Assembly (NCBI RefSeq): GCF_011682045.1
Contig: NZ_VVIW01000003.1
Coordinates: 186,001 to 250,000, forward strand
Direction: 5' to 3'
From: Massilia aquatica
GTDB taxonomy: Bacteria > Pseudomonadota > Gammaproteobacteria > Burkholderiales > Burkholderiaceae_D
DNA length: 64,000 nt
In this document: piece after piece, positions 42,775-59,483 of the stretch
Layout of the letters: each line of letters opens with the position of its first letter
How positions within the stretch are numbered: the first letter of the stretch is position 1
Notes under the pieces: generated by a model
Databases searched by the model: none
What the model saw: the letters and a program-made list of their open reading frames with translations, nothing else
Told to the model about the DNA's origin: nothing
Made by a program: the position numbers and the translations under genes

Positions 42775-43452
42775 ATGAAAGCTGCTGAACTTATCTCGGC
42801 GTTATCCAGCAAACTTGGCACAACTTCCCAATCTGAACTCGCAGATGCATTAGGGGTAACGGTAGGAACGCTTAGCAATTGGAAGAATAGAGATGAAGAT
42901 TTGAGCGCATTGCAGGTTGCATCCGCTTTGGCAAAATCTCGCTCCGCAGCGGTACGTAAGTCCCAATTTGAGACTATTCAACCTATAGTTGAATTTTACT
43001 CAATTAATAGGTGTGAATCTGCCCAAGGCGCTGGCTGGTTGGTTTTCGATGGGGGAGCTGGTGCAAATTTATATGCGAAAGGATTAAGAGATGCGCTTCG
43101 TGAAAGTCATGGGATATATATATTTTATGATTCCCGGGGACGTGCATTATATGTCGGAAAAGCCAGAGAGCAGACGATATGGAAAGAAATGAATCTGGCG
43201 TACAACCGAAAGCGAGATATTCAGAAAATATCGCTCGTACGCCATCCGGAACGAAATCAGGAATTTAAGCCAGGCTACGAAAAATTACGGCAGCCAAAAG
43301 ACACGCAACTTGAATTATTTGATTTGGCTTGTTATTTTAGTGCTTATCGCGTTGATGATGGAATGATTGATGACCTGGAGGCGTTAATGGTAAGGGGGTT
43401 TGTAAATGACTTATTAAATGTCCGTATGGAAACTTTTGCGCATGCAAGATAA
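42775..43452 (+). CDS. Helix-turn-helix protein fused to a GIY-YIG nuclease domain
   Basis: 225 residues. Residues 1-60 form a Cro/CI-type HTH (QSELADALGVTVGTLSNWKN). After a linker, residues about 112-220 form a GIY-YIG domain: HGIYIFYDSRGRALYVGKA contains both signature parts, EMNLAYNRKRDIQ carries the conserved basic position, and IDDLEALMVRGFVNDLLN gives the glutamate and asparagine. The gene lies in AT-rich DNA unlike its surroundings, which suggests transfer. It could be a DNA-binding nuclease of a mobile element or a defence protein; neither partner genes nor target are visible. Confidence 0.78.
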   Translation: MKAAELISALSSKLGTTSQSELADALGVTVGTLSNWKNRDEDLSALQVASALAKSRSAAVRKSQFETIQPIVEFYSINRCESAQGAGWLVFDGGAGANLYAKGLRDALRESHGIYIFYDSRGRALYVGKAREQTIWKEMNLAYNRKRDIQKISLVRHPERNQEFKPGYEKLRQPKDTQLELFDLACYFSAYRVDDGMIDDLEALMVRGFVNDLLNVRMETFAHAR

Positions 43453-45745: not shown

Positions 45746-47218
45746 GTGACGGATCAATCAAAGGGCGCGAATTGGGCGCTGGAATCGGGCACATGGTCCA
45801 TGGAGCGCGGCGGAGCCGAATTGCGGCTGACTGAAACCAGGATGGGATTCCCGGTTTCTCCATTATTCACATCCGCAGATCTGGTCCAGGCGATGCACAT
45901 GCGTACCGCGCCGGATGGTTCCGGCCCGGCTTACCCGCCCGAGTTCGAGTTTTCGCCGCTGGACGGCGCGCCCCTGCAGGCAGCCCGTAGCAGCGAGGCG
46001 GTCTGGATTGCACCGAGCGGCGCGCGTTCGGTGAACGACCCGTCGGCGCAGCTGGCCGTGGGGTTGCAGCAAAGCGCGCAATCGATCGACAGCGCCTTGC
46101 TGAGAGGCGGCGAGCCCGATGGCGAGCCGCCGCTGGAAATGCCCTTGCCGCCGCCCGGCGCGTATGAATTCTTTTCCGCGCCCTTCGGCACCCGCGCCAG
46201 TGCGCTCATTGCCATCGATACCAGCAAGGGCGCGGTATTTGCATGGCTGCCGGCCGCGCAGGCCTGGCAGCCGTTGGCGGGCGAGGATGCCCTGCTGTCC
46301 GAATGTCATTTGTCCCATCGTGCATGGCGCGCCGAATTGATGGTGCAATTTAACAGCTGTCTGTTCCTGGCGACGGACAATGGCCTGGTGCTGCTGCAGC
46401 CGGATTTTGCGGCACTACAGTATCGTGTTGCCTATTTCGGTGACGGTGCGGCGCAGGCTGCGCCGATCGCCTTCGAAAAAAGGGTGTGGGTGCCCGTGAC
46501 CGACCGCAGCGGCATGCTCAAGATGGTCAACGTCGATACCGAAGGTGAAGAGGGCCCGCCTTTGTTACTCGGCAACGTTCACGATATTGGCGAAGTGAGC
46601 CGGCCCGTCGCCTATGGGCGGACGGCGGTCTGGCCTTGTGGAAAAGGCCAGATTTGTCTGCAGACGGGGCCTGACGGGTCGGTTTCCGCCAGCTTCATTC
46701 CTTGGCAGCAAGACATCATGCCCCACTTCGAATTCGGCTCGCCTTACCTCTCGCGTGCCGGCGTGCTGTGGCAACTGTGCTTTTCCGGCACCGAAGACAC
46801 CTATGTGTACGTGCGCCTCGGAACCACCCGCTGGGAGCGCGTGCCCGCGCTCACGCCGCGCCTGTGCTCGGGTACGGTCAACTACCGCTTCAGCACCATG
46901 TATCCGGGCGTCGATCCGTGGCTGGAACCTGAACACGGCGACGACGGCGCCGCCAACGCGGTGGTGTTCCCCTTGCTGGAACTGAACGGTGGCGTGCTGG
47001 CGCTGAAGATGGCCAGTACATCGAGCCTGACCGCGCTGCTCAATTCGCACGACAAGATGCGCGCCGAACTGATTTTCGAAGACCGCAGCAGCGCGTTCGT
47101 GATTCAAACGATCCCCGTGCCGCAGCCATGGGACATGCGCGTATTCGTCCACCAGGGCGCCCTGTGGGCCTATCATCCGGGCATGCAGCGGATCATCGGC
47201 TGGGGCGTGGCGGTATGA
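45746..47218 (+). CDS. Tubulin-like operon gene 1: unknown cytosolic protein, possible beta-propeller
   Basis: 490 residues from the GTG at 45746 (preceded by TTGGAGCG); an ATG at 45698 would add 16 arginine-rich residues of doubtful value. There is no signal peptide or membrane span. Repeating strand-rich blocks with aromatic ends (ALIAIDTSKGAVFAWLPA, SCLFLATDNGLVLLQPDF, KRVWVPVTDRSGMLKMVNV, GALWAYHPGMQRIIGWG) suggest a beta-propeller, an inference from pattern only. The stop overlaps the next start (ATGA), so it belongs to the tubulin-like operon. Confidence 0.72.
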   Translation: MTDQSKGANWALESGTWSMERGGAELRLTETRMGFPVSPLFTSADLVQAMHMRTAPDGSGPAYPPEFEFSPLDGAPLQAARSSEAVWIAPSGARSVNDPSAQLAVGLQQSAQSIDSALLRGGEPDGEPPLEMPLPPPGAYEFFSAPFGTRASALIAIDTSKGAVFAWLPAAQAWQPLAGEDALLSECHLSHRAWRAELMVQFNSCLFLATDNGLVLLQPDFAALQYRVAYFGDGAAQAAPIAFEKRVWVPVTDRSGMLKMVNVDTEGEEGPPLLLGNVHDIGEVSRPVAYGRTAVWPCGKGQICLQTGPDGSVSASFIPWQQDIMPHFEFGSPYLSRAGVLWQLCFSGTEDTYVYVRLGTTRWERVPALTPRLCSGTVNYRFSTMYPGVDPWLEPEHGDDGAANAVVFPLLELNGGVLALKMASTSSLTALLNSHDKMRAELIFEDRSSAFVIQTIPVPQPWDMRVFVHQGALWAYHPGMQRIIGWGVAV

Positions 47219-48705
47219 GCGCGCTTGGCCGGCTGTTCCCGAAGTTGACCGTCGCGTTTGTCCTGGGCGCCGCATGGCTTGCCCCCGCGTGCGCCGTCCA
47301 GCAAGCATTCCTGGTCCAGAATTCAGGCTGGATGGAGCCGTTTTATACCGATCCGGATTCGCAGTTCAAGCCCCTCATCGCCGCCGTCGCGGGTGCCGCC
47401 GCCAGCCCCGGCGACAAGCTGACCCTGCTCGCGTTCAGCCAGACCAGCGGCACCAATGTCTCGCCGCTGGCGCTGGGCGAGATCGGTACCGCAGGCGCCG
47501 TCATGCCGTCCCTGGCCGCGCTGGGACTGGCCCGCAAGGGAGGTCCCAACTCGGCCCTGGCCGACACGGATTTCCAGGAAGCCATCGGCAGCGTCATTCG
47601 CACGACCTTCGGGGCCAGGCCGGGCATCATCTGGATTTTCACGAACAATAAGAACAGTCCGGGCAACGACCCCGCCACCGCGGCGCGCAATCTCGATTTC
47701 TACCGCATGCTGCACCTGGAGCCGTCCATCACGCGCACCCTCGTGTTCCCGCTCAAGATGCCCGTTCAAGGCAAGAAATTCGCGGCGCGCGGCTTGATGG
47801 TCTACGCGCTCGCCTACGGCAAGGAAGCCGGCGACGAGCTCAACAAGATCCTGGCCAATGGCAGGCTGTCGGCCATCCTGACGCGCCAGCCGGCCCGCTT
47901 AAAGCCGGTGGACCAGGACGGCGTGCGCATCGTGCCCGAATCGATCCTCAATACGCCGGACATCAAGGCCAGCATCGGCCGCGACCAGCGCACCCTGGTG
48001 CTCGATGTCGAGGCATCGAAGCTGGTGCCGGCGGTGCGCCTGAAGGCTTCGCTGGAAAACCTGTTCTATCCGTATCTGATCGGCCATGCGGGCGTGCAGG
48101 GGACACTGCGGGTCGGCCAGCGCACGGTGCCGCTGGAGGTTACGCCGGCCAACATCGACAACCTCGCTCCGGGCGAACGCAAGTCGATCGAAGTCAATTT
48201 CAAGCTGCCGCTGGAAGAAGTGCCTTCGGCCTGGTCGCGCCAGTCGATGGCCGCCATGGGCAAGCAGGTGACGATCCCCATGACCGTCGAACTGGGCCTG
48301 TCCGACCAGCAGCTGGCGCTGCCGGACAGCTTCAAGGCGGAGATGGCCGAACTGTTTCCGGGCGACCCGATCTCGGACGTCTTCGTGCCACCGGCCAGCG
48401 TGCGCGTCTCGATGACCCGGGTGCCGCTGCTGGTGCGGGTCCAGTATCCGATGCTGCCCGTGCTGGTGGTCATCGGCGCCGTGTTCGCTTTCGTGGCGGC
48501 GCTGCTGGGCCTGTTGCTGTTGTCGTCCCGCAGCACGCGCTACGCCGTCCATGTCGACGGCGTGCGCCGCCAGGTCGTGCTCAAACCCTTCCGCAGCCTG
48601 GTCATCCAGGATGGCGAAGGCAATCCGGTGGGCACGCTACGGCGCGGTGTCGGCGGCCCGCAAGTCTCAAGCGTGCTGCCGGGACATACGCTAACCCTTG
48701 GCTGA
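47215..48705 (+). CDS. Tubulin-like operon gene 2: exported vWA-like membrane-anchored protein
   Basis: 496 residues from the ATG at 47215, coupled to gene 1. A signal peptide (LTVAFVLGAAWLAPACA) leads into a vWA-like Rossmann domain. The first strand is AFLVQNSGWMEPF, where QNSGW replaces the metal-binding DxSxS; the later IIWIFTNNKNSPG replaces the usual TDG. So the metal site looks altered. Beta-rich regions follow, then a transmembrane helix (LPVLVVIGAVFAFVAALLGLL split near residue 20) at about 420-440 and a cytosolic tail ending in VSSVLPGHTLTLG. It probably exposes the vWA part to the periplasm. Confidence 0.75.
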   Translation: MSALGRLFPKLTVAFVLGAAWLAPACAVQQAFLVQNSGWMEPFYTDPDSQFKPLIAAVAGAAASPGDKLTLLAFSQTSGTNVSPLALGEIGTAGAVMPSLAALGLARKGGPNSALADTDFQEAIGSVIRTTFGARPGIIWIFTNNKNSPGNDPATAARNLDFYRMLHLEPSITRTLVFPLKMPVQGKKFAARGLMVYALAYGKEAGDELNKILANGRLSAILTRQPARLKPVDQDGVRIVPESILNTPDIKASIGRDQRTLVLDVEASKLVPAVRLKASLENLFYPYLIGHAGVQGTLRVGQRTVPLEVTPANIDNLAPGERKSIEVNFKLPLEEVPSAWSRQSMAAMGKQVTIPMTVELGLSDQQLALPDSFKAEMAELFPGDPISDVFVPPASVRVSMTRVPLLVRVQYPMLPVLVVIGAVFAFVAALLGLLLLSSRSTRYAVHVDGVRRQVVLKPFRSLVIQDGEGNPVGTLRRGVGGPQVSSVLPGHTLTLG

Positions 48706-48747
48706 CGCCATCTCCTTTTTCGCTTTTCACCTCGCCCAGGAACCATC

Positions 48748-49191
48748 ATGCAAGAAAAAAAAGACAATGCCGGCTTCGCCTTGCCGGCGCCGGTCGAAAC
48801 TAACCCGGCTGCGCCGGCCGCGCCTGCGACCGATACTGCGGCGCCTGCTGCGACCACCACGGTAGAAGGCCAAATGCCGGGCTTGCCCGCCGAAGCGGTC
48901 AACACCGGCTCGCGCGACATGATGATCGGCGGCGCCGTCCTGCTGGTGCTGTTCATCGCCTTCTTTTTCGCGAAAAACGCCTACGCCAACGGACTCGTCG
49001 GCAAACGGGTGCCGCCGGCCAAGGCCAATGCCGCCGGCTGGTGGATGTTCATTTTCATGGCCAGCCTGGCCACCGCCGTGGTGCTGGCAGTCGTCAATTC
49101 GGCCAAGTTCGTCGCGCCCATGTTCCTCGGCCCGCTCGGCGCGGTGGCGATCGTCGCCCTGGTCCTGATGATCCTCTCCGGCCGCAAGTAA
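48748..49191 (+). CDS. Tubulin-like operon gene 3: small membrane protein
   Basis: 147 residues. The first 50 are alanine/proline/threonine rich (PAAPAAPATDTAAPAATT). Then come three hydrophobic helices (MMIGGAVLLVLFIAFFFA, WMFIFMASLATAVVLAVV, APMFLGPLGAVAIVALVLMI). Start after CCCAGGAACC. It lies 42 bp from both neighbours in the operon. No family is recognised; a membrane platform for the GTPase is a reasonable guess. Confidence 0.72.
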   Translation: MQEKKDNAGFALPAPVETNPAAPAAPATDTAAPAATTTVEGQMPGLPAEAVNTGSRDMMIGGAVLLVLFIAFFFAKNAYANGLVGKRVPPAKANAAGWWMFIFMASLATAVVLAVVNSAKFVAPMFLGPLGAVAIVALVLMILSGRK

Positions 49192-49233
49192 TTTCCCCCG
49201 CACCACTGACAGTTCACAAGGAATCCAAGCATC

Positions 49234-52200
49234 ATGGCAGACAATCTCAACCAGACTATCGGCGCCGGCAACGAGCGTAAGGCGGAGCAGAGCATCGACC
49301 TGCGCCCCACGCTTTTCATAGGCATCGGTGGTACCGGGATGGAAGTGCTGATGCGGGTGCGCCGGCGTATCCTGAACACGATGTGGGGCGGTTCCGGCGC
49401 GCGCACGCGCATCGAGAGCCTGACCGAGTTCCCGGTTGCGCAATTCATCCAGTTCGACCTCGATACCGGCGCCATCGTCGACAGCGGCCGGGCCCAGTCG
49501 GAAGACTTGCAGTTCGACCAGGTCAAGTTCACCGACGATGAAAAAATCGTCGAAGGCTTCGACATGGACAAGTACAGCCGCGACGACGACGCCCTGGAAA
49601 AATACCCGCACATCAAGGAATGGCTGTCGCTCACGCCCAAGAAAATCCGTGAACTGGGCATCGATCCTTCCAAGGGCGCGGGCCAGATCCGCGCCGTCTC
49701 GCGCCTGTACCTGTTCGACAAATACATCAAGATCCGCGACAAGATCCGCCTCAAGCTGAAGAACCTGAAGGCCGGCCTGTCGCACGAAAGCCAGCTGAGC
49801 GCACTCGGCTTGCGCATGGAAACGAGCAAATTCCGTATCGTCATCGTCGGTTCGGTGGCCGGCGGCACCGGTTCCGGCGCCTTCCTCGACATGGGCCTGA
49901 TGGCGCGCTGGCTGGCCAAGTCGGAAGTCGGCCACGCCGACGTCGAACTGATGCTGTTCCTGCCCACCGGCTATGCGGGCGCCAACAAGGACCGCACCGA
50001 AGCGAATGGCTACGCCGCGCTGATGGAGCTCGAATCGGCCATGCTGGGCAACAAGGGTTACGTGGGCCGCTGGGATGCCTACGACCAGCCGGAATTGCCG
50101 CGCGAGCCCTACCACGAAGTCTACCTGATCGATTCGGGCAACCTGGCGCAGCAGCACACCAAGGATGTCAAGGACGTCTACCACATGGTGGCCGACGCCC
50201 TGTTCGAAGATTTCGCCTCGGGCGACTTCGCGCGCAAGAAGCGCTCGGTGGCCGTCAACCAGGCGCAGCACAAGAACTTCCTGCACGATGCACTGGTGCC
50301 GAAGAACCGCTTTGCCGACATGCGCCTGTCGTATTCGAAACGCTTTTCCTCGTTCGGCCAGGCCGTGCTCGACACGCGCCAGGAAGCGCGCCGCGACGAA
50401 CGCGCCTACCGCTGGGCCGGCGCCATGCTGATGGCCTTCTTCGGGGTGGGCGGCAGCGATGTGGGCGCCAACCGCGCCACCGACAAGCAGCGCGATGAAT
50501 TCACCTCCGCGCAAATGGCGCTGAACAAGACGCCATTCAGCGATTTTCCGGAGTTTTCCGACAGCGCCATCGAGCTGAAACGATCGAGCGGCCAGTTCGA
50601 CGAGTACGCCATCGTCGACAACCTGCTGCAGGACAAAAATGGCTTGCTGCTGGCCGGGGTGGAACAGCGCGTCAACGTGCGCATGGACACCATCAAGAGC
50701 GGCTTCGACCGCAAGGAATGGCCGGCGCAAGTGCGCGAAGCGGTCAAGCAGCTCGAACGCGATGCCGTGCGCGACCAGGATTCGACCGCCGACACCACCG
50801 AAGACCGGGTTACCAAGCGGCGCCGCGAAGTGCTGGAACAAATCAAGGGCAATATCCGCACCCAGCTGTATGCCTACCTGGACAACAAGGAATTCGGCGG
50901 CCTCGAATACGTGCTCTCGCTGGTCGAACAGATCAAGGACAAGCTCGAATCGCCCGGCACCGGCATCCTCAACGCCCTGAGCACGAATGCCGAGCGCTAC
51001 CGCGAAATCAAGGAAGCCGTGCGCACCCGCGAGTACGAGCGCCTGCTGGCCAACCTCGAGCAGACCCGTGGCGGCCTGTTCGGCGGCGGCGAGAAGCAGG
51101 CCGTGACCGTCATGGATCACTTGCGCACCGAAATTGCCAATGCCCTCAAATTCCATCTGCGCGCCAAGGCCGCCGACGAAGCCGTGGCGCTCATGACCGA
51201 GCTGTCGGCCTGGCTGGGCAAGCGCACCGGGGTCGATGCCCAGGGCCGCGCCCACTGGAACGGCCTGGTCGGCGAATTCCAGGCCGGCCGCGAAGCGGTG
51301 CTGGCCATGCTGGCCCAGCTCCAGCATTCCAACGCCGTGCTGCAGCAGGATTTGCGCAAGGACCACGCCACCCTGATCGCCATCCAGGTCAACCAGCCCG
51401 AGGTGGCCTTGCCGGGTGCGGCCCAGCTGCGCGAATGGGCCGACGACGCCTTCAAGGACCTGGGCGGTTCCAGGGCGCTGTTCCCGATGCTCGGTGAACC
51501 GGCCCAGCGTGCCGACATCCTGCTCAAGGTCAAGCGCATGGCCGAGCGACAACTGGCCCTGGCCAGCGCCACCGATGGCGACACGGCGGCATCGGATCCC
51601 CTGTTCGATGCACTTGAACAGATGAATCCGGCCGAGCGCATGGACAAGTTCCGCAAGCTGCTGGCCTGTTCCATGCCGTGGATCGACGCCAACCTGGCGG
51701 GCGACTTCACGGTCAAGGCCGACCAGTTCAAATGCTTCATCGGGGTGGCCGGCGCCGCCAGGTTCAAGGCCAAGTTCGGCGATGAACTAGGCGCCGGCAT
51801 TCCGACCCACGCCGGGATTACGGCGGCGCAACTGGAAATCGTCGAAACCGGCGTGCCCGGCCGCGCGGTCTGCTACTGCGAGCTGTCCGGGATTCCCATG
51901 ACAGTCCTGCGCGGCATGCCCGGCTGGCGCACCAGCTACCGCAAGGAAGCCGAAAAGAATCCGACCCACACGCACATCGACGCGACCCAGTTCAGCCACC
52001 CGATGGCGCCGTCGACCGAAGAAATTGGCCGCCTGGCCGAAGACTTCAAGTACTACCTGCTCGCTGTCATGCTGGGCATACTGACCCGCTCGACGCAGCG
52101 CATCGTGCCGCGCGGCCAGTACCAGTTCGCCGTGGCGCGGGGCGACGTGCGCCGCATTGGCAACGAACGCGCCGTGCGCCAGAACGGCTTGCCGTCGACC

Positions 52201-52959
52201 TACCGCGCCGCCATCGTCAGCCGCGTGCAAGACCGCCTGGCCGAATGCGACGCCGAGCAGACCGCGGCCCTGGCGGCGCTGGCGCATTTCTACGAGACCG
52301 CCGTGTACACGCCCAAACTGGTCGAGGACGCCACCGGCGCGCAAGAGAGCCGCAAGGGTTTCGCCAGCGCCATATCGAGCGAAGTCATGCATGAGCTGCG
52401 CGACAAAGCGCGCCGCAAGGGCATGGGCGAGCGCGAACTGGACCAGCTCGACGAGCGCCTGCAGAACAGCCTGAAGGACTGGGCTGTGGTGGTGGCCGAT
52501 TCGGATGAAGATGCTTACGACTACGAAGTGCGCGAGCCGGGCGACGATGGTCAGCCGCGCCTGAAATTTGCCATGCGTCCTGAGATGCTCGAAACGGGCG
52601 CCATGGCGGCGCTGCTGGCGCGCGGCGCCGCTGCCGGCGCGGCCGTCACGCCTGGCGCGGCGGGCTTGCCGGGCCTGGCGCCGGCCATGCCGCCGATGCC
52701 GGGCATGCCGCCGCCGCTGGGTGGAATGCCGCCGCCGCTGGTCGAGCATCAGTATCACCTTGGGGTGGGCGGCCAGCAGTACGGCCCGTTCGGCGCGATG
52801 CAGGTGGTGCAGATGGTCCAGTCCGGCCAGATCGCCGTTGCCGGCACCAAGGTCTGGCGCGTGGGCCTGACCGCCTGGGGCGAGCTGGGCCAGTTGCCGG
52901 AACTGGCGCTGCTGCTCCAGGCGCCGGCCGCGCCGATGATGCCTCCACCTCTGGTTTAA
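49234..52959 (+). CDS. Tubulin-like operon gene 4: bacterial tubulin-like GTPase with C-terminal GYF_2 domain
   Basis: 1241 residues. The N-terminal ~450 residues match the bacterial tubulin-like family (Pfam Tubulin_2). A glycine loop lies at 29-35 (IGIGGTG), and the tubulin/FtsZ signature loop A209-GGTGSG at 210-215 lies in VGSVAGGTGSGAFLDMG; this corresponds to GGGTGTG of FtsZ. The middle is a long helical region (about 480-800, with coiled segments such as LQHSNAVLQQDLRKDH). A glycine/proline/methionine linker near 1130-1170 leads to a GYF_2 domain (QQYGPFGAMQVVQMVQ, WRVGLTAWGELGQL) that should bind proline-rich peptides. It may polymerise with GTP; no direct evidence. Central component of the six-gene operon. 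Confidence 0.85.
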   Translation: MADNLNQTIGAGNERKAEQSIDLRPTLFIGIGGTGMEVLMRVRRRILNTMWGGSGARTRIESLTEFPVAQFIQFDLDTGAIVDSGRAQSEDLQFDQVKFTDDEKIVEGFDMDKYSRDDDALEKYPHIKEWLSLTPKKIRELGIDPSKGAGQIRAVSRLYLFDKYIKIRDKIRLKLKNLKAGLSHESQLSALGLRMETSKFRIVIVGSVAGGTGSGAFLDMGLMARWLAKSEVGHADVELMLFLPTGYAGANKDRTEANGYAALMELESAMLGNKGYVGRWDAYDQPELPREPYHEVYLIDSGNLAQQHTKDVKDVYHMVADALFEDFASGDFARKKRSVAVNQAQHKNFLHDALVPKNRFADMRLSYSKRFSSFGQAVLDTRQEARRDERAYRWAGAMLMAFFGVGGSDVGANRATDKQRDEFTSAQMALNKTPFSDFPEFSDSAIELKRSSGQFDEYAIVDNLLQDKNGLLLAGVEQRVNVRMDTIKSGFDRKEWPAQVREAVKQLERDAVRDQDSTADTTEDRVTKRRREVLEQIKGNIRTQLYAYLDNKEFGGLEYVLSLVEQIKDKLESPGTGILNALSTNAERYREIKEAVRTREYERLLANLEQTRGGLFGGGEKQAVTVMDHLRTEIANALKFHLRAKAADEAVALMTELSAWLGKRTGVDAQGRAHWNGLVGEFQAGREAVLAMLAQLQHSNAVLQQDLRKDHATLIAIQVNQPEVALPGAAQLREWADDAFKDLGGSRALFPMLGEPAQRADILLKVKRMAERQLALASATDGDTAASDPLFDALEQMNPAERMDKFRKLLACSMPWIDANLAGDFTVKADQFKCFIGVAGAARFKAKFGDELGAGIPTHAGITAAQLEIVETGVPGRAVCYCELSGIPMTVLRGMPGWRTSYRKEAEKNPTHTHIDATQFSHPMAPSTEEIGRLAEDFKYYLLAVMLGILTRSTQRIVPRGQYQFAVARGDVRRIGNERAVRQNGLPSTYRAAIVSRVQDRLAECDAEQTAALAALAHFYETAVYTPKLVEDATGAQESRKGFASAISSEVMHELRDKARRKGMGERELDQLDERLQNSLKDWAVVVADSDEDAYDYEVREPGDDGQPRLKFAMRPEMLETGAMAALLARGAAAGAAVTPGAAGLPGLAPAMPPMPGMPPPLGGMPPPLVEHQYHLGVGGQQYGPFGAMQVVQMVQSGQIAVAGTKVWRVGLTAWGELGQLPELALLLQAPAAPMMPPPLV

Positions 52960-52969
52960 GGAATTTGTT

Positions 52970-54205
52970 GTGAAATCGTGTACCACATGCGCGTCCCCGC
53001 TCTGTAGCGACGTGAAATACTGCCCGTTCTGCGGGGACGGTACGACGGCCCAGGCCCGCGCAAACAAGCCAGCGGCGCGCGCCGCCGTGGCTGCGCCAGC
53101 CGATGGCGAGGCCGCGCCCGCGCCGCGCGCCAGGCGCGCGCCCGAAGCGGCAGCCGCGCCGGCGCCAGCGGTTCCCGCAGCGCGCCCAGGTCCGGCAGGG
53201 CCCGCCGTTCCCGCAGCGGCGGCGGGCCCTGCCGTCGCGGCGCGCGAGGGCGTGCGCGGCACCCCGCCATCGTTCCCTGTCCCGCCGGCGCCTGTCGCGC
53301 CTAAAAAAGGCGGGTTCGGCAAGTGGGTCGTGCTGGCTGTGATCGCGGCGGGTCTGTTCCTTTACTTCAAGAACAAGCCCGACCAGAACGAAGTCGCCTG
53401 CAATGCCGCTTTCGATGCAGGCAACAAGGCCTTGCTGGCCAAGGACATGGCGGGTGCGCGCAGCCAGGCGCTGCTGGCCAATGGCAGCTGCACCGGGGAC
53501 TTGCGCAACAAGGCGCAGTCGCTGCAAACGGCACTCGAGTCGGCCGAGTCGGCCAGCAGCGGTTGCCTGCGCAGCTTCCGCACCATCGACAGCCACCTCG
53601 ATGACCACAAGCTCGCCAGCGCGCGCGAGGCGCTGAACCGGCTCTCTAGCAGGTGTTCGGCCGAGCCGGATGCCGCGCAGGCGCGCGGCAAACTCACTGC
53701 GGCAGTCGTGGCAACGCAGGCTGCGCAAGCCATCCTGCGTGAAGCGCTCGACGCCAACGACGTCGCTGCGGCAAAGACGGCGTATGCACGCCTGCTTGGC
53801 CTGAACCGCGAGAACCCCGATCTGGCTTCGCTCAAGAAGGAGCTCGCCCAGTCGGTGGCGGCGGCCGCCGAGGCAGCCGTGACGCGTGCTGTCGCAGCGG
53901 CGCCGGAGCCTGCCAGGCCGGTTGCCCCGGCCCCGGTCCGGGTGCAGGAAGCGGCGCGCCCGTCGCCACCGCCACCGAGTCGTAAGCAGGAAGCGGACAG
54001 CGGCGCCGCAGTCAAGGCGGAGATGGCGGGCAGTTTCCTGCGCGAGGCGGAGACAGCGCTGTCGCAGAAAAAATTCGATGCCGCCAAAACCTACGTGGAA
54101 AGCGCACGCCGGATGGATCCGAACAATCCCCGTCTGGACAGCATGCTGCAGCGTATCAACGACCGCGAACACCAGGTATTGCAACAAGAATCGACCCTCA
54201 GATAA
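52970..54205 (+). CDS. Tubulin-like operon gene 5: zinc-ribbon membrane protein with helical repeats
   Basis: 411 residues from a GTG start (TAAGGAATTT ahead), 10 bp after the GTPase gene. The N-terminal zinc ribbon has C4, C7, C18 and C21 (CTTC...CPFC). A proline/alanine-rich linker (about 30-105) could be the ligand of the partner's GYF_2 domain. A transmembrane helix (WVVLAVIAAGLFLYF, about 118-133) is followed by a helical, TPR-like outer part with repeated alanine/leucine patterns (ARSQALLANGSCTGDLRNKAQ, ETALSQKKFDAAKTYVESAR). The ribbon should face the cytoplasm and the repeats the periplasm. Confidence 0.75.
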   Translation: MKSCTTCASPLCSDVKYCPFCGDGTTAQARANKPAARAAVAAPADGEAAPAPRARRAPEAAAAPAPAVPAARPGPAGPAVPAAAAGPAVAAREGVRGTPPSFPVPPAPVAPKKGGFGKWVVLAVIAAGLFLYFKNKPDQNEVACNAAFDAGNKALLAKDMAGARSQALLANGSCTGDLRNKAQSLQTALESAESASSGCLRSFRTIDSHLDDHKLASAREALNRLSSRCSAEPDAAQARGKLTAAVVATQAAQAILREALDANDVAAAKTAYARLLGLNRENPDLASLKKELAQSVAAAAEAAVTRAVAAAPEPARPVAPAPVRVQEAARPSPPPPSRKQEADSGAAVKAEMAGSFLREAETALSQKKFDAAKTYVESARRMDPNNPRLDSMLQRINDREHQVLQQESTLR

Positions 54206-54225
54206 ATTCACAACCCGGAAGAGCC

Positions 54226-54942
54226 ATGCAAAATACATCGACAAAACTGATTGCCCTGGCATTGGTCACAAGCATCGTCGGCGGCTGCGCGATGCCTCCC
54301 CAGCAGGGTGATGTCTATCGTAACGCCTCCGATTCGCCGCGCAACGCCGGCGCCGAAGATCCGTGCAGCGTGGGCCAAGCGGCGCTCGCGGGCGCGGCCA
54401 TTGGCGCCCTGTTGGGCGGCCTGACCAAGGGCGGCAAGGGTGCTGTGAAAGGCGCGCTTGCCGGTGGCGCCGTCGGTGCCGCTGGCTGCCTGGCGATTAA
54501 CGCCAACTCGCGCCAGACGCGCACGGCGGCGCAGGTCGACCAGGCCTACATCCAGGCCAACAACCGCCTGCCGGCCGACCCCCAGGTGCTGGCTTACACG
54601 CCGACGATCGCCAGCACGGCCCAGCGTGGCCAGCCGGTGCGGGTCAACTCGACCGTCGAACTGGTCAACGGCTCGCAGAACAAGGTGACCGAAGTCCGTG
54701 AAGAGTTGCAGGTATTTGACCAGTCCGGCAAGCAATTCCTGGGCGGTCAGAAGCCGCTCACCAACAACAGCGGCGGACGCTTCGAGAATTCCTTCGTCAT
54801 GACCTTGCCGCAGTCGGTATCGCAGGGTACCTACACGATGAAGACCACGTTGTATGTCAACGGCAAGGTATCGGCGACGCGCAACCTGCAGACCCAGCTT
54901 GTGATTGATGAGCGCGGCGTGATGATGGTGGCCAGCCGGTAA
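54226..54942 (+). CDS. Tubulin-like operon gene 6: lipoprotein with glycine zipper
   Basis: 238 residues. A lipoprotein signal ends in SIVGG-C21. A glycine zipper (AALAGAAIGALLGGLTKGG, then GALAGGAVGAAGCLA) suggests insertion into the membrane. The C-terminal half is beta-rich (VRVNSTVELVNGSQNKV, GTYTMKTTLYVNGKVSATR). Last gene of the operon, 20 bp after gene 5. Such lipoproteins often sit in the outer membrane, so the operon may span the envelope. Confidence 0.75.
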   Translation: MQNTSTKLIALALVTSIVGGCAMPPQQGDVYRNASDSPRNAGAEDPCSVGQAALAGAAIGALLGGLTKGGKGAVKGALAGGAVGAAGCLAINANSRQTRTAAQVDQAYIQANNRLPADPQVLAYTPTIASTAQRGQPVRVNSTVELVNGSQNKVTEVREELQVFDQSGKQFLGGQKPLTNNSGGRFENSFVMTLPQSVSQGTYTMKTTLYVNGKVSATRNLQTQLVIDERGVMMVASR

Positions 54943-55439: not shown

Positions 55440-55838
55440 CTATTTTTCAGACGACAGGAAGGGCGCGGCTTCGCCAGCCCTGCGGATGATCAAGCCCCTT
55501 AAAAGAACGAACTTCGTCTTGCCGTCGCGTCCCTTGACCCGTGCTTTTGTCATTGATGCGATCAGCCGTCCAGCCGCCTTCAGGTTGCCGCTGCCGACGA
55601 GGTCGAATATGTCCGATGAGCCTGGGATGCCGAGGTTGTATGCCAGGCTCACCAAGGCGTCAAATTGAATCTCGGATAATGCCTGCTTAGTAACCCGGCG
55701 GCGAACACCCCTCTCCGCTTCCGCGACTTTTGATGAGAACGCCACCTCGACTTGAGCTGCACTGACCTTCTGCTTCAGCTCAGCTGCGGTGCATGGGCCA
55801 TCGTGGGCTTTGATACCGATGCCCCAGGTGCAATTTCC
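55440..55838 (-). pseudogene. Remnant of a GH24 phage-type lysozyme
   Basis: One frame reads GNCTWGIGIKAHDGPCT (from about 55838), then ELKQKVSAAQVEVAFSSKV and IQFDALVSLAYNLG, ending PFLSSEK at 55440. The CTWGIG and FDALVSLAYNLG motifs are those of GH24 endolysins. The first in-frame start (GTG, 55745) would skip the motif region. Upstream, the expected catalytic glutamate segment is not recognisable, although the frame stays open. So it is a front-truncated or decayed endolysin, pointing to a former prophage beside the tRNA. Confidence 0.6.
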
Positions 55839-56061: not shown

Positions 56062-56138
56062 TGGTCAGGGTGAGAGGATTCGAACCTCCGGCCTCTGTGT
56101 CCCGAACGCAGCGCTCTACCAGGCTGAGCCATACCCCA
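56062..56138 (-). tRNA. tRNA-Pro(CGG), degenerate copy
   Basis: 77 nt including encoded CCA, with anticodon loop TTCGGGA (CGG) and intact D and T arms. Compared with the copy at 59407-59483 it has four differences, all transitions: pair 1-72 becomes T-G, 2-71 becomes G-T, 7-66 becomes an A-C mismatch, and 30-40 becomes a C-A mismatch in the anticodon stem. It is probably non-functional and marks the left end of an island. Confidence 0.75.
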
Positions 56139-59406: not shown

Positions 59407-59483
59407 TGGTCGGGGTGAGAGGATTCGAACCTCCGGCCTCTGCGTCCCGAACGCAGCGCTCTACCAGGCTGAGCCACACCCCG
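59407..59483 (-). tRNA. tRNA-Pro(CGG), intact copy
   Basis: 77 nt including encoded CCA. The acceptor stem CGGGGTG pairs with CACCCCG. The D arm is GCTC/GAGC, the anticodon stem CTGCG/CGCAG has loop TTCGGGA (anticodon CGG), and the T arm GGAGG-TTCGAAT-CCTC is canonical. All stems pair. It is transcribed away from the island and next to ispB. Confidence 0.95.

What the first reader, a model, noticed from the sequence alone, without database searches (positions are those of the whole stretch)
45746..54942. Six-gene envelope operon built around a bacterial tubulin-like GTPase: candidate undescribed system
One tight operon (gaps of -4, 42, 42, 10 and 20 bp) encodes a possible propeller, an exported vWA-like protein with altered metal motif, a three-helix membrane protein, a 1241-residue tubulin-like GTPase with signature loop AGGTGSG and C-terminal GYF_2, a zinc-ribbon membrane protein with periplasmic helical repeats, and a glycine-zipper lipoprotein. 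The proline-rich linkers of genes 3 and 5 are natural ligands for GYF_2. Together they could form a cytoskeletal or mechanochemical complex spanning cytoplasm to outer membrane. Roles in cell shape, envelope stress, secretion or defence are all open.
Basis: partly seen in the sequence, partly recalled or inferred. Interest (0 to 1): 0.82.

Follow-up and report, generated by a model that had tools for sequence, protein, structure and literature searches.

The report
Tubulin-like GTPase operon in Massilia
Six neighbouring genes in a bacterium related to Massilia encode a distant relative of tubulin together with proteins predicted to sit in the inner membrane, the periplasm and the outer membrane; related bacteria keep the set in the same order, and it may be a GTP-driven scaffold that links the cell interior to its envelope.

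The parts
45746..47218 (+). g1: beta-propeller protein, 490 aa, no signal peptide seen by eye, predicted cytoplasmic
47215..48705 (+). g2: signal peptide, periplasmic vWA-like domain with degenerate metal motif (QNSGW, ADTD, TNNxNSP), TM at about 403-440, short cytoplasmic C-terminal part
48748..49191 (+). g3: three-TM inner membrane protein; Ala/Pro-rich N-tail with conserved GFxLP motif
   Evidence: motif in 41 of 42 loci
49234..52959 (+). g4: 1241-aa tubulin-like GTPase (Tubulin_2), long helical insertion, C-terminal GYF_2 and PPPL tail
52970..54205 (+). g5: N-terminal zinc ribbon, Ala/Pro linker, one TM, periplasmic part with weak helical-repeat match and 4 Cys
54226..54942 (+). g6: lipoprotein with glycine-zipper segment; Ala after the lipidated Cys (outer-membrane sorting inferred)

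Best explanation
It is an FtsZl1-type (Tubulin_2) system. The GTPase g4 most likely forms a GTP-controlled oligomer or filament on the cytoplasmic face of the inner membrane (inferred from fold). Through its GYF_2 domain and conserved C-terminal tail, and with the propeller g1 as adaptor, it docks on an inner-membrane group made of g3, the short cytoplasmic end of g2 and the zinc ribbon of g5 (inferred from anatomy and co-conservation). g2 (vWA-like) and g5 carry the link through the periplasm towards the outer-membrane lipoprotein g6 (localisation inferred from signal sequences). The machine would organise or remodel the envelope as a standing housekeeping function, not as an acquired defence. 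Shown: conservation as a unit, domain content, and deletion of type B together with presence of type A in this genome. Not shown: GTP binding, polymerisation, any contact between the proteins, any phenotype.
Against: A normal FtsZ is present, so division is not the obvious role. No motor of the TolQ/ExbB/MotA kind was found in the six genes by Pfam. The 2010 reviewer's objection stands: a cytoplasmic tubulin needs a membrane-crossing partner to act on the outer membrane. A helical insertion of about 400 residues and an unidentified T7 loop could prevent polymerisation; Foldseek's own TM-scores for the whole model are low (0.26-0.44 by target length in the 50 rows listed). Distribution beyond the genus is patchy (10 of 399 in the order sample; 8 of 398 in the phylum sample). 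Related loci lie beside caspase-domain genes, which fits a conflict role. Genome G1001 keeps a full type A set and a type B set on one contig, so the two are not mutually exclusive and the apparent replacement may be chance loss. In Azospirillum g2 and g5 were not found among the annotated neighbours tested, so the chain is not fixed.
Confidence: 0.45

Rival explanations
1. A conflict or programmed-stress system in the sense of Kaur et al. 2020: the tubulin assembles after an envelope sensor (vWA, propeller) detects invasion or damage, as a threshold switch for a killing or sealing response; the small membrane protein g3 could be the effector.
For: Tubulin + vWA operons in Firmicutes and Actinobacteria are put in GAP1-N2 conflict systems in PMC7159879 (section 29). 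Caspase-family, DUF4384 and OmpA genes flank the Azospirillum relative, and a caspase-domain lipoprotein and a DUF4384 protein lie beside the 1000-aa Tubulin_2 paralogue in L149 (the caspase also matches a PADLOC model, E 1.3e-7).
Against: None of the six proteins matches a P-loop GTPase, nuclease, caspase or known defence model (no GAP1 model was run). A g4 relative is in 17 of 17 genomes of the genus examined, the window's included, and type B sits among shared chromosomal neighbours. No phage hits, 2 plasmid hits.
Confidence: 0.25
2. A GTP-regulated signalling or scaffolding complex that does not polymerise: g4 acts as a monomeric or dimeric switch gathering g1, g2, g3 and g5.
For: Long helical insertion and large C-terminal part; T7 loop not identified by sequence alignment; the 2010 paper left open that these proteins might not form filaments.
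Against: The predicted fold matches nearly the whole CetZ and tubulin chain, more than a mere GTP switch would need; T1 and T4 loops are conserved.
Confidence: 0.15
3. A transport or secretion apparatus: periplasmic vWA and repeat proteins plus a lipoprotein move a substrate across the envelope, the tubulin organising or powering it.
For: Reviewer 1 of PMC2875224 noted transport genes beside FtsZl1 genes; a substrate-binding protein gene is annotated beside a Cylindrospermopsis Tubulin_2 gene.
Against: No channel, secretin, ABC or substrate family matched over its cut-off in the six genes; the window's flanks found no consistent counterpart in the other loci read.
Confidence: 0.1

Closest known systems
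FtsZl1 / Tubulin_2 (PF13809) systems, Makarova and Koonin 2010 (PMC2875224)
   Same: Tubulin_2 domain with GGTG and AGGTGSG loops, long helical part after it, operon with membrane and exported proteins, a vWA-like partner
   Different: g1 propeller, GYF_2 on the tubulin, three-TM g3, zinc-ribbon g5 and glycine-zipper g6 are not named in the parts of that paper read here (its supplementary gene tables could not be read); no OmpA domain, kinase or P-loop GTPase matched in this operon; a second tubulin domain is predicted here, which the 2010 paper could not find
GAP1-N2 GTPase-centric conflict systems with tubulin, Kaur et al. 2020 (PMC7159879)
   Same: tubulin with helical extension, vWA, membrane-bound parts, zinc ribbons
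   Different: no P-loop GTPase match in the six genes; GAP1 and FNIII parts not seen but GAP1 not tested by a model; [quoted passage not shown]
Agl/Glt gliding machinery of Myxococcus, GltJ (AgmX)
   Same: GYF domain related by sequence to 7z3c, 'Adventurous gliding motility protein X'; here too a zinc ribbon, a one-TM protein with periplasmic part and an outer-membrane end
   Different: GTPase is tubulin-like, not MglA; no motor family in the six genes; GYF and zinc ribbon lie on separate proteins. That 7z3c is AgmX/GltJ (not the separate aglX) and that GltJ also carries a zinc ribbon contacted by MglA are recalled (Attia et al. 2024, not held)
CetZ, FtsZ and tubulin (PF00091)
   Same: predicted fold over nearly the whole CetZ or tubulin chain
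   Different: no PF00091 match; helical insertion of about 400 residues; GYF_2 and tail at the C terminus

Membership tests
FtsZl1 / Tubulin_2 | N-terminal Tubulin_2 domain with GTP-binding loops | tested here: met
   PF13809 E 3.2e-56, cut-off passed; T1 GxGGTG and T4 AGGTG[SA]G
FtsZl1 / Tubulin_2 | long, mostly helical region after the GTPase domain | tested here: met
   AlphaFold2 model, mostly helices across about 417-813 and again 928-1129
FtsZl1 / Tubulin_2 | vWA partner in the operon (in the majority of operons, not defining) | tested here: inconclusive
   Pfam VWA_2 in 2 of 27 g2 homologues, best E 0.037; 0 of 8; profile alignment E 0.012 with the three MIDAS loops in register, but 1 of 20 column shuffles scored better, and a first, smaller profile failed; 4 homologues in the list bear VWA/VWFA names in UniRef
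FtsZl1 / Tubulin_2 | OmpA-domain partner (several genomes, not defining) | tested here: not met
   no PF00691 in g1-g6 at E 0.1; g6 matches only the N-terminal glycine-zipper part of OmpA-like lipoproteins; OmpA genes lie beside the Azospirillum relative
GAP1-N2 conflict system | DO-GTPase and GAP1 genes | tested here: inconclusive
   no P-loop GTPase family in g1-g6 at E 0.1, but no GAP1 or DO-GTPase model was run and flanks were not scanned systematically
Agl/Glt machinery | GYF domain of the GltJ kind | tested here: met
   7z3c, E 1e-7, 5.7e-5; that 7z3c is GltJ is recalled from its name
Agl/Glt machinery | AglRQS motor | tested here: not met
   no such family among the six genes; the rest of the genome was not searched for it
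canonical tubulin/FtsZ | PF00091 domain | tested here: not met
   not among matches of g4 at E 0.1; the genome's only PF00091 match is the FtsZ gene
canonical tubulin/FtsZ | T7 loop that completes GTP hydrolysis in a filament | not testable with these tools
known anti-phage defence systems | match to a PADLOC model | tested here: not met
   0 of 6 proteins at E 0.1

The most novel reading that the evidence does not exclude
A tubulin with the complete two-domain fold, split by a helical insertion of about 400 residues, is the engine of a trans-envelope machine that runs from cytoplasm to outer membrane, built on the docking logic of the Myxococcus focal adhesion (GYF and zinc ribbon) but driven by a tubulin instead of a Ras-like GTPase, and important enough in the Massilia group that one version has taken over from another.
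Probability: 0.2. Interest if true: 0.85.

Novelty: new variant of a known kind. Interest (0 to 1): 0.56.

Why it matters
Tubulin_2 proteins have been known since 2010; the listings of the paper searches made here showed no experimental study of one, and two rival roles (membrane remodelling, conflict) are in print. This operon gives a compact test case with a defined partner set, a docking domain with a solved relative, and one genome in which a diverged version has been deleted while this one is present. A tubulin acting through the whole Gram-negative envelope would be a new kind of bacterial cytoskeletal machine.

Tried and rejected
GYF_2 binding of the proline-rich linkers of g3 and g5: no PPG core in either in the window. 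The only PPPG is in g1, in 17 of 20 distinct loci with g6 and 0 of 19 without, although both types have the GYF-like C-terminal domain by eye, so it cannot be the general ligand.

Known defence system: no PADLOC match. Phage or plasmid element: no phage and 2 plasmid records with a relative.

vWA proof by profile: a first profile of 4 vWA sequences of this genome failed (E 0.34, no better than a shuffle); a larger one of 18 sequences gave E 0.012, but 1 of 20 shuffles was better. Pfam gave 0 of 8 in a second set of homologues, four of them with VWA/VWFA names. Left as weak.

Sequence alignment of g4 with this genome's FtsZ to find the T7 loop reached only the T4 region. g2 and g1 profiles against solved-structure sequences gave nothing significant (weak BamB rows for g1, E 0.2-0.5). 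g5 of type B and g6 gave nothing significant either.

Covariation: the g1 zinc-ribbon motif CPxCG is in 18 of 19 distinct loci without g6 and 2 of 20 with; the acidic IPDP-type tail of g4 in 17 of 19 and 1 of 20; the PPPL tail in 0 of 19 and 17 of 20. It rests on few independent changes, and L068 and L070 have the ribbon without an IPDP tail; kept as a lead only. The Azospirillum tail holds both kinds of motif.

Rows dropped: 3 duplicate g4 sequences before the 39-locus counts. L151 (weak g4 match, E 9e-6) falls outside the 49; L074 and L163 have no g4 match. L172 and L173 were read after the counts and are not in them. Loci in the 49 were chosen because they hold a g4 relative; the unbiased test is. 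Some lists were capped by the tools (the best 120 homologues of 1038 and of 682).
Full report
WHAT IS THERE. The six ORFs lie on the + strand at the coordinates given, with gaps of -4, 42, 42, 10 and 20 bp. Only g4 has Pfam matches over the cut-off: Tubulin_2 (E 3.2e-56) and GYF_2 (E 1.5e-9). NCBIfam and PADLOC add no assignment. The genome is 7.47 Mb in 99 contigs with one Tubulin_2 gene and an ordinary FtsZ gene on the same contig. Its genus includes the genome of Massilia frigida: the contig of handle G004 has the length of that named record, and the g4 proteins are identical.

CONSERVATION. tblastn and then profile searches over fetched loci show the same gene order widely. Of 49 loci with a g4-like gene (E 1e-10), the window included, 42 have g1, g2 and g3, all in the same order and on the same strand; g5 is in 41 (the one without it, L066, ends at a contig end), g6 in 22. 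Because these loci were picked for g4, the reverse test matters. In a family sample of 294 genomes Tubulin_2 is in 83 and g2 in 82, with 81 shared. Tubulin_2 alone: G803, below cut-off, and G1011, another type (L151). g2 alone: G025, where the start of g4 was seen beside g2 at what looks like a contig end. In an order sample of 399 the numbers are 10 and 8, with 8 shared. In a phylum sample Tubulin_2 is in 8 of 398, 7 over the cut-off. Pairwise identities of g1 to g5 correlate at 0.79-0.89 over 39 distinct loci, 38 for g5; shared ancestry alone can give much of that.

TWO TYPES. Type A (this window; loci L002-L011 with 73-81% identity in g4, among them Massilia aurea, Duganella qianjiadongensis, Rubrivivax gelatinosus, Variovorax and Paraburkholderia madseniana) mostly has g6 and a g4 tail with PPPL. 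Type B (41-48%) mostly lacks g6, has a g4 tail of the IPDPDDDIPDPD kind, and its g1 carries a CPxCG zinc-ribbon motif. All 16 other same-genus genomes examined have a type B g4; one of them, G006, a 48%-complete assembly, has it broken by stops; all 16 also have a g2. Type B loci share chromosomal neighbours: 15 of the 19 distinct loci without g6 have one upstream gene in common, and 10 of the 19 (and L162) a molybdopterin-oxidoreductase-like gene downstream (the latter named by eye). In the window's own genome these two neighbours are present at 95% identity on contig C11 but only 2.6 kb apart. Between them are a remnant of type B g1 (residues 2-58), short remnants of g4 (residues 987-1037, and by eye its acidic tail), and a g5 open frame of about full length. 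So this genome has lost the type B core and carries type A on another contig. That is what replacement of a needed function would look like, but chance loss after redundancy is not excluded: genome G1001 keeps a full type A set (g1-g6, g4 72% identical to the window's) and a type B set (g1-g4, with a weak g5 match; g4 81% identical to that of L058) on one contig.

g2. Signal peptide, periplasmic domain, TM at about 403-440, a positively charged short tail. VQ[ND]SGW in 38, AD[TA]D in 39 and TNN[RK]NSP in 39 of 39 distinct loci. These sit where the three MIDAS loops of a vWA domain would be, with the usual DxSxS replaced by QNSGW. The statistics are weak; four homologues in the list bear VWA or VWFA names in UniRef. 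I call it vWA-like.

g3, g5, g6. g3: a GFxLP-type motif in the N-tail of 41 of 42 loci; in the 41 loci where three segments were called the first loop has 3-4 positive and 0-1 negative charges, and the N-tail more negative than positive ones. By the positive-inside rule the N-tail is periplasmic, which speaks against binding to a cytoplasmic GYF_2. g5: zinc ribbon in 37 of the 38 distinct loci that have g5 (missing in L068), with 4-8 further Cys in 35 of these 37, one TM in the window; in L070 the periplasmic part matches PEGA. g6: lipobox in 20 of 20 distinct loci with g6.

WIDER RELATIVES. Azospirillum sp. TSA2s plasmid p2 has g1 (E 1e-14), g3 (E 1.8e-15) and g4 with GYF_2; g2, g5 and g6 were not found among the 16 of 18 annotated proteins of the stretch that were tested. 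Around it are three caspase-family, three OmpA and two DUF4384 genes. A shorter Tubulin_2 paralogue of about 1000 aa in genomes of the window's family (L148-L150, L152) has other partners; in L149 they are a caspase-domain lipoprotein, a DUF4384 protein and a zinc-ribbon-like TPR protein, and L152 has a distant g6 relative (E 3e-4). These keep the conflict reading alive.

LITERATURE. PMC2875224 (parts 1-3 of 5 read), PMC7159879 (section 29 and passages), PMC9871819 (passages; it calls Tubulin_2 proteins FtsZ-like and leaves them out of its main trees), PMC3169522 and PMC8262864 (passages). The listings of searches showed no paper on this operon (one search listed 20 of 293); the library holds open-licence papers only.

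VERDICT. A real, conserved operon of a known but little-studied family, with a richer and partly new partner set. Most likely a GTP-driven envelope scaffold (0.45), with a conflict or stress role as the chief rival (0.25).

Noticed in passing
window 56062-56138 and 59407-59483: Two tRNA-Pro (CGG) genes on the - strand, 95% identical over 81 bp, flank a lower-GC segment of 3.3 kb with two ORFs that match no Pfam family at E 0.01; a likely insertion site beside a polyprenyl synthetase gene and an Obg gene.
   Followed up: partly
window 55440-55745, - strand: Phage lysozyme fragment of 101 aa (PF00959 E 2.7e-9, start of the profile missing) just downstream of the operon.
   Followed up: no
window 42775-43452: Low-GC gene for a CI-repressor-type HTH protein (PF07022 E 1.9e-6); the rest looks GIY-YIG-like by eye only.
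   Followed up: no
L148-L150, L152: A second, shorter Tubulin_2 protein of about 1000 aa with other partners; in L149 these include a caspase-domain lipoprotein, a DUF4384 protein and a zinc-ribbon-like TPR protein.
   Followed up: partly
L165 1-21207 (Azospirillum sp. TSA2s plasmid p2): Relatives of g1, g3 and g4 between caspase, OmpA and DUF4384 genes; g2 and g5 not found among the annotated proteins tested.
   Followed up: partly
L171 8308-9306 (contig C11 of the window's genome): Orphan type B g5 open frame left in the deletion scar of the type B operon.
   Followed up: partly
L172 and L173 (genome G1001): Full type A set and a type B set (g1-g4, weak g5 match) on one contig about 225 kb apart.
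   Followed up: partly
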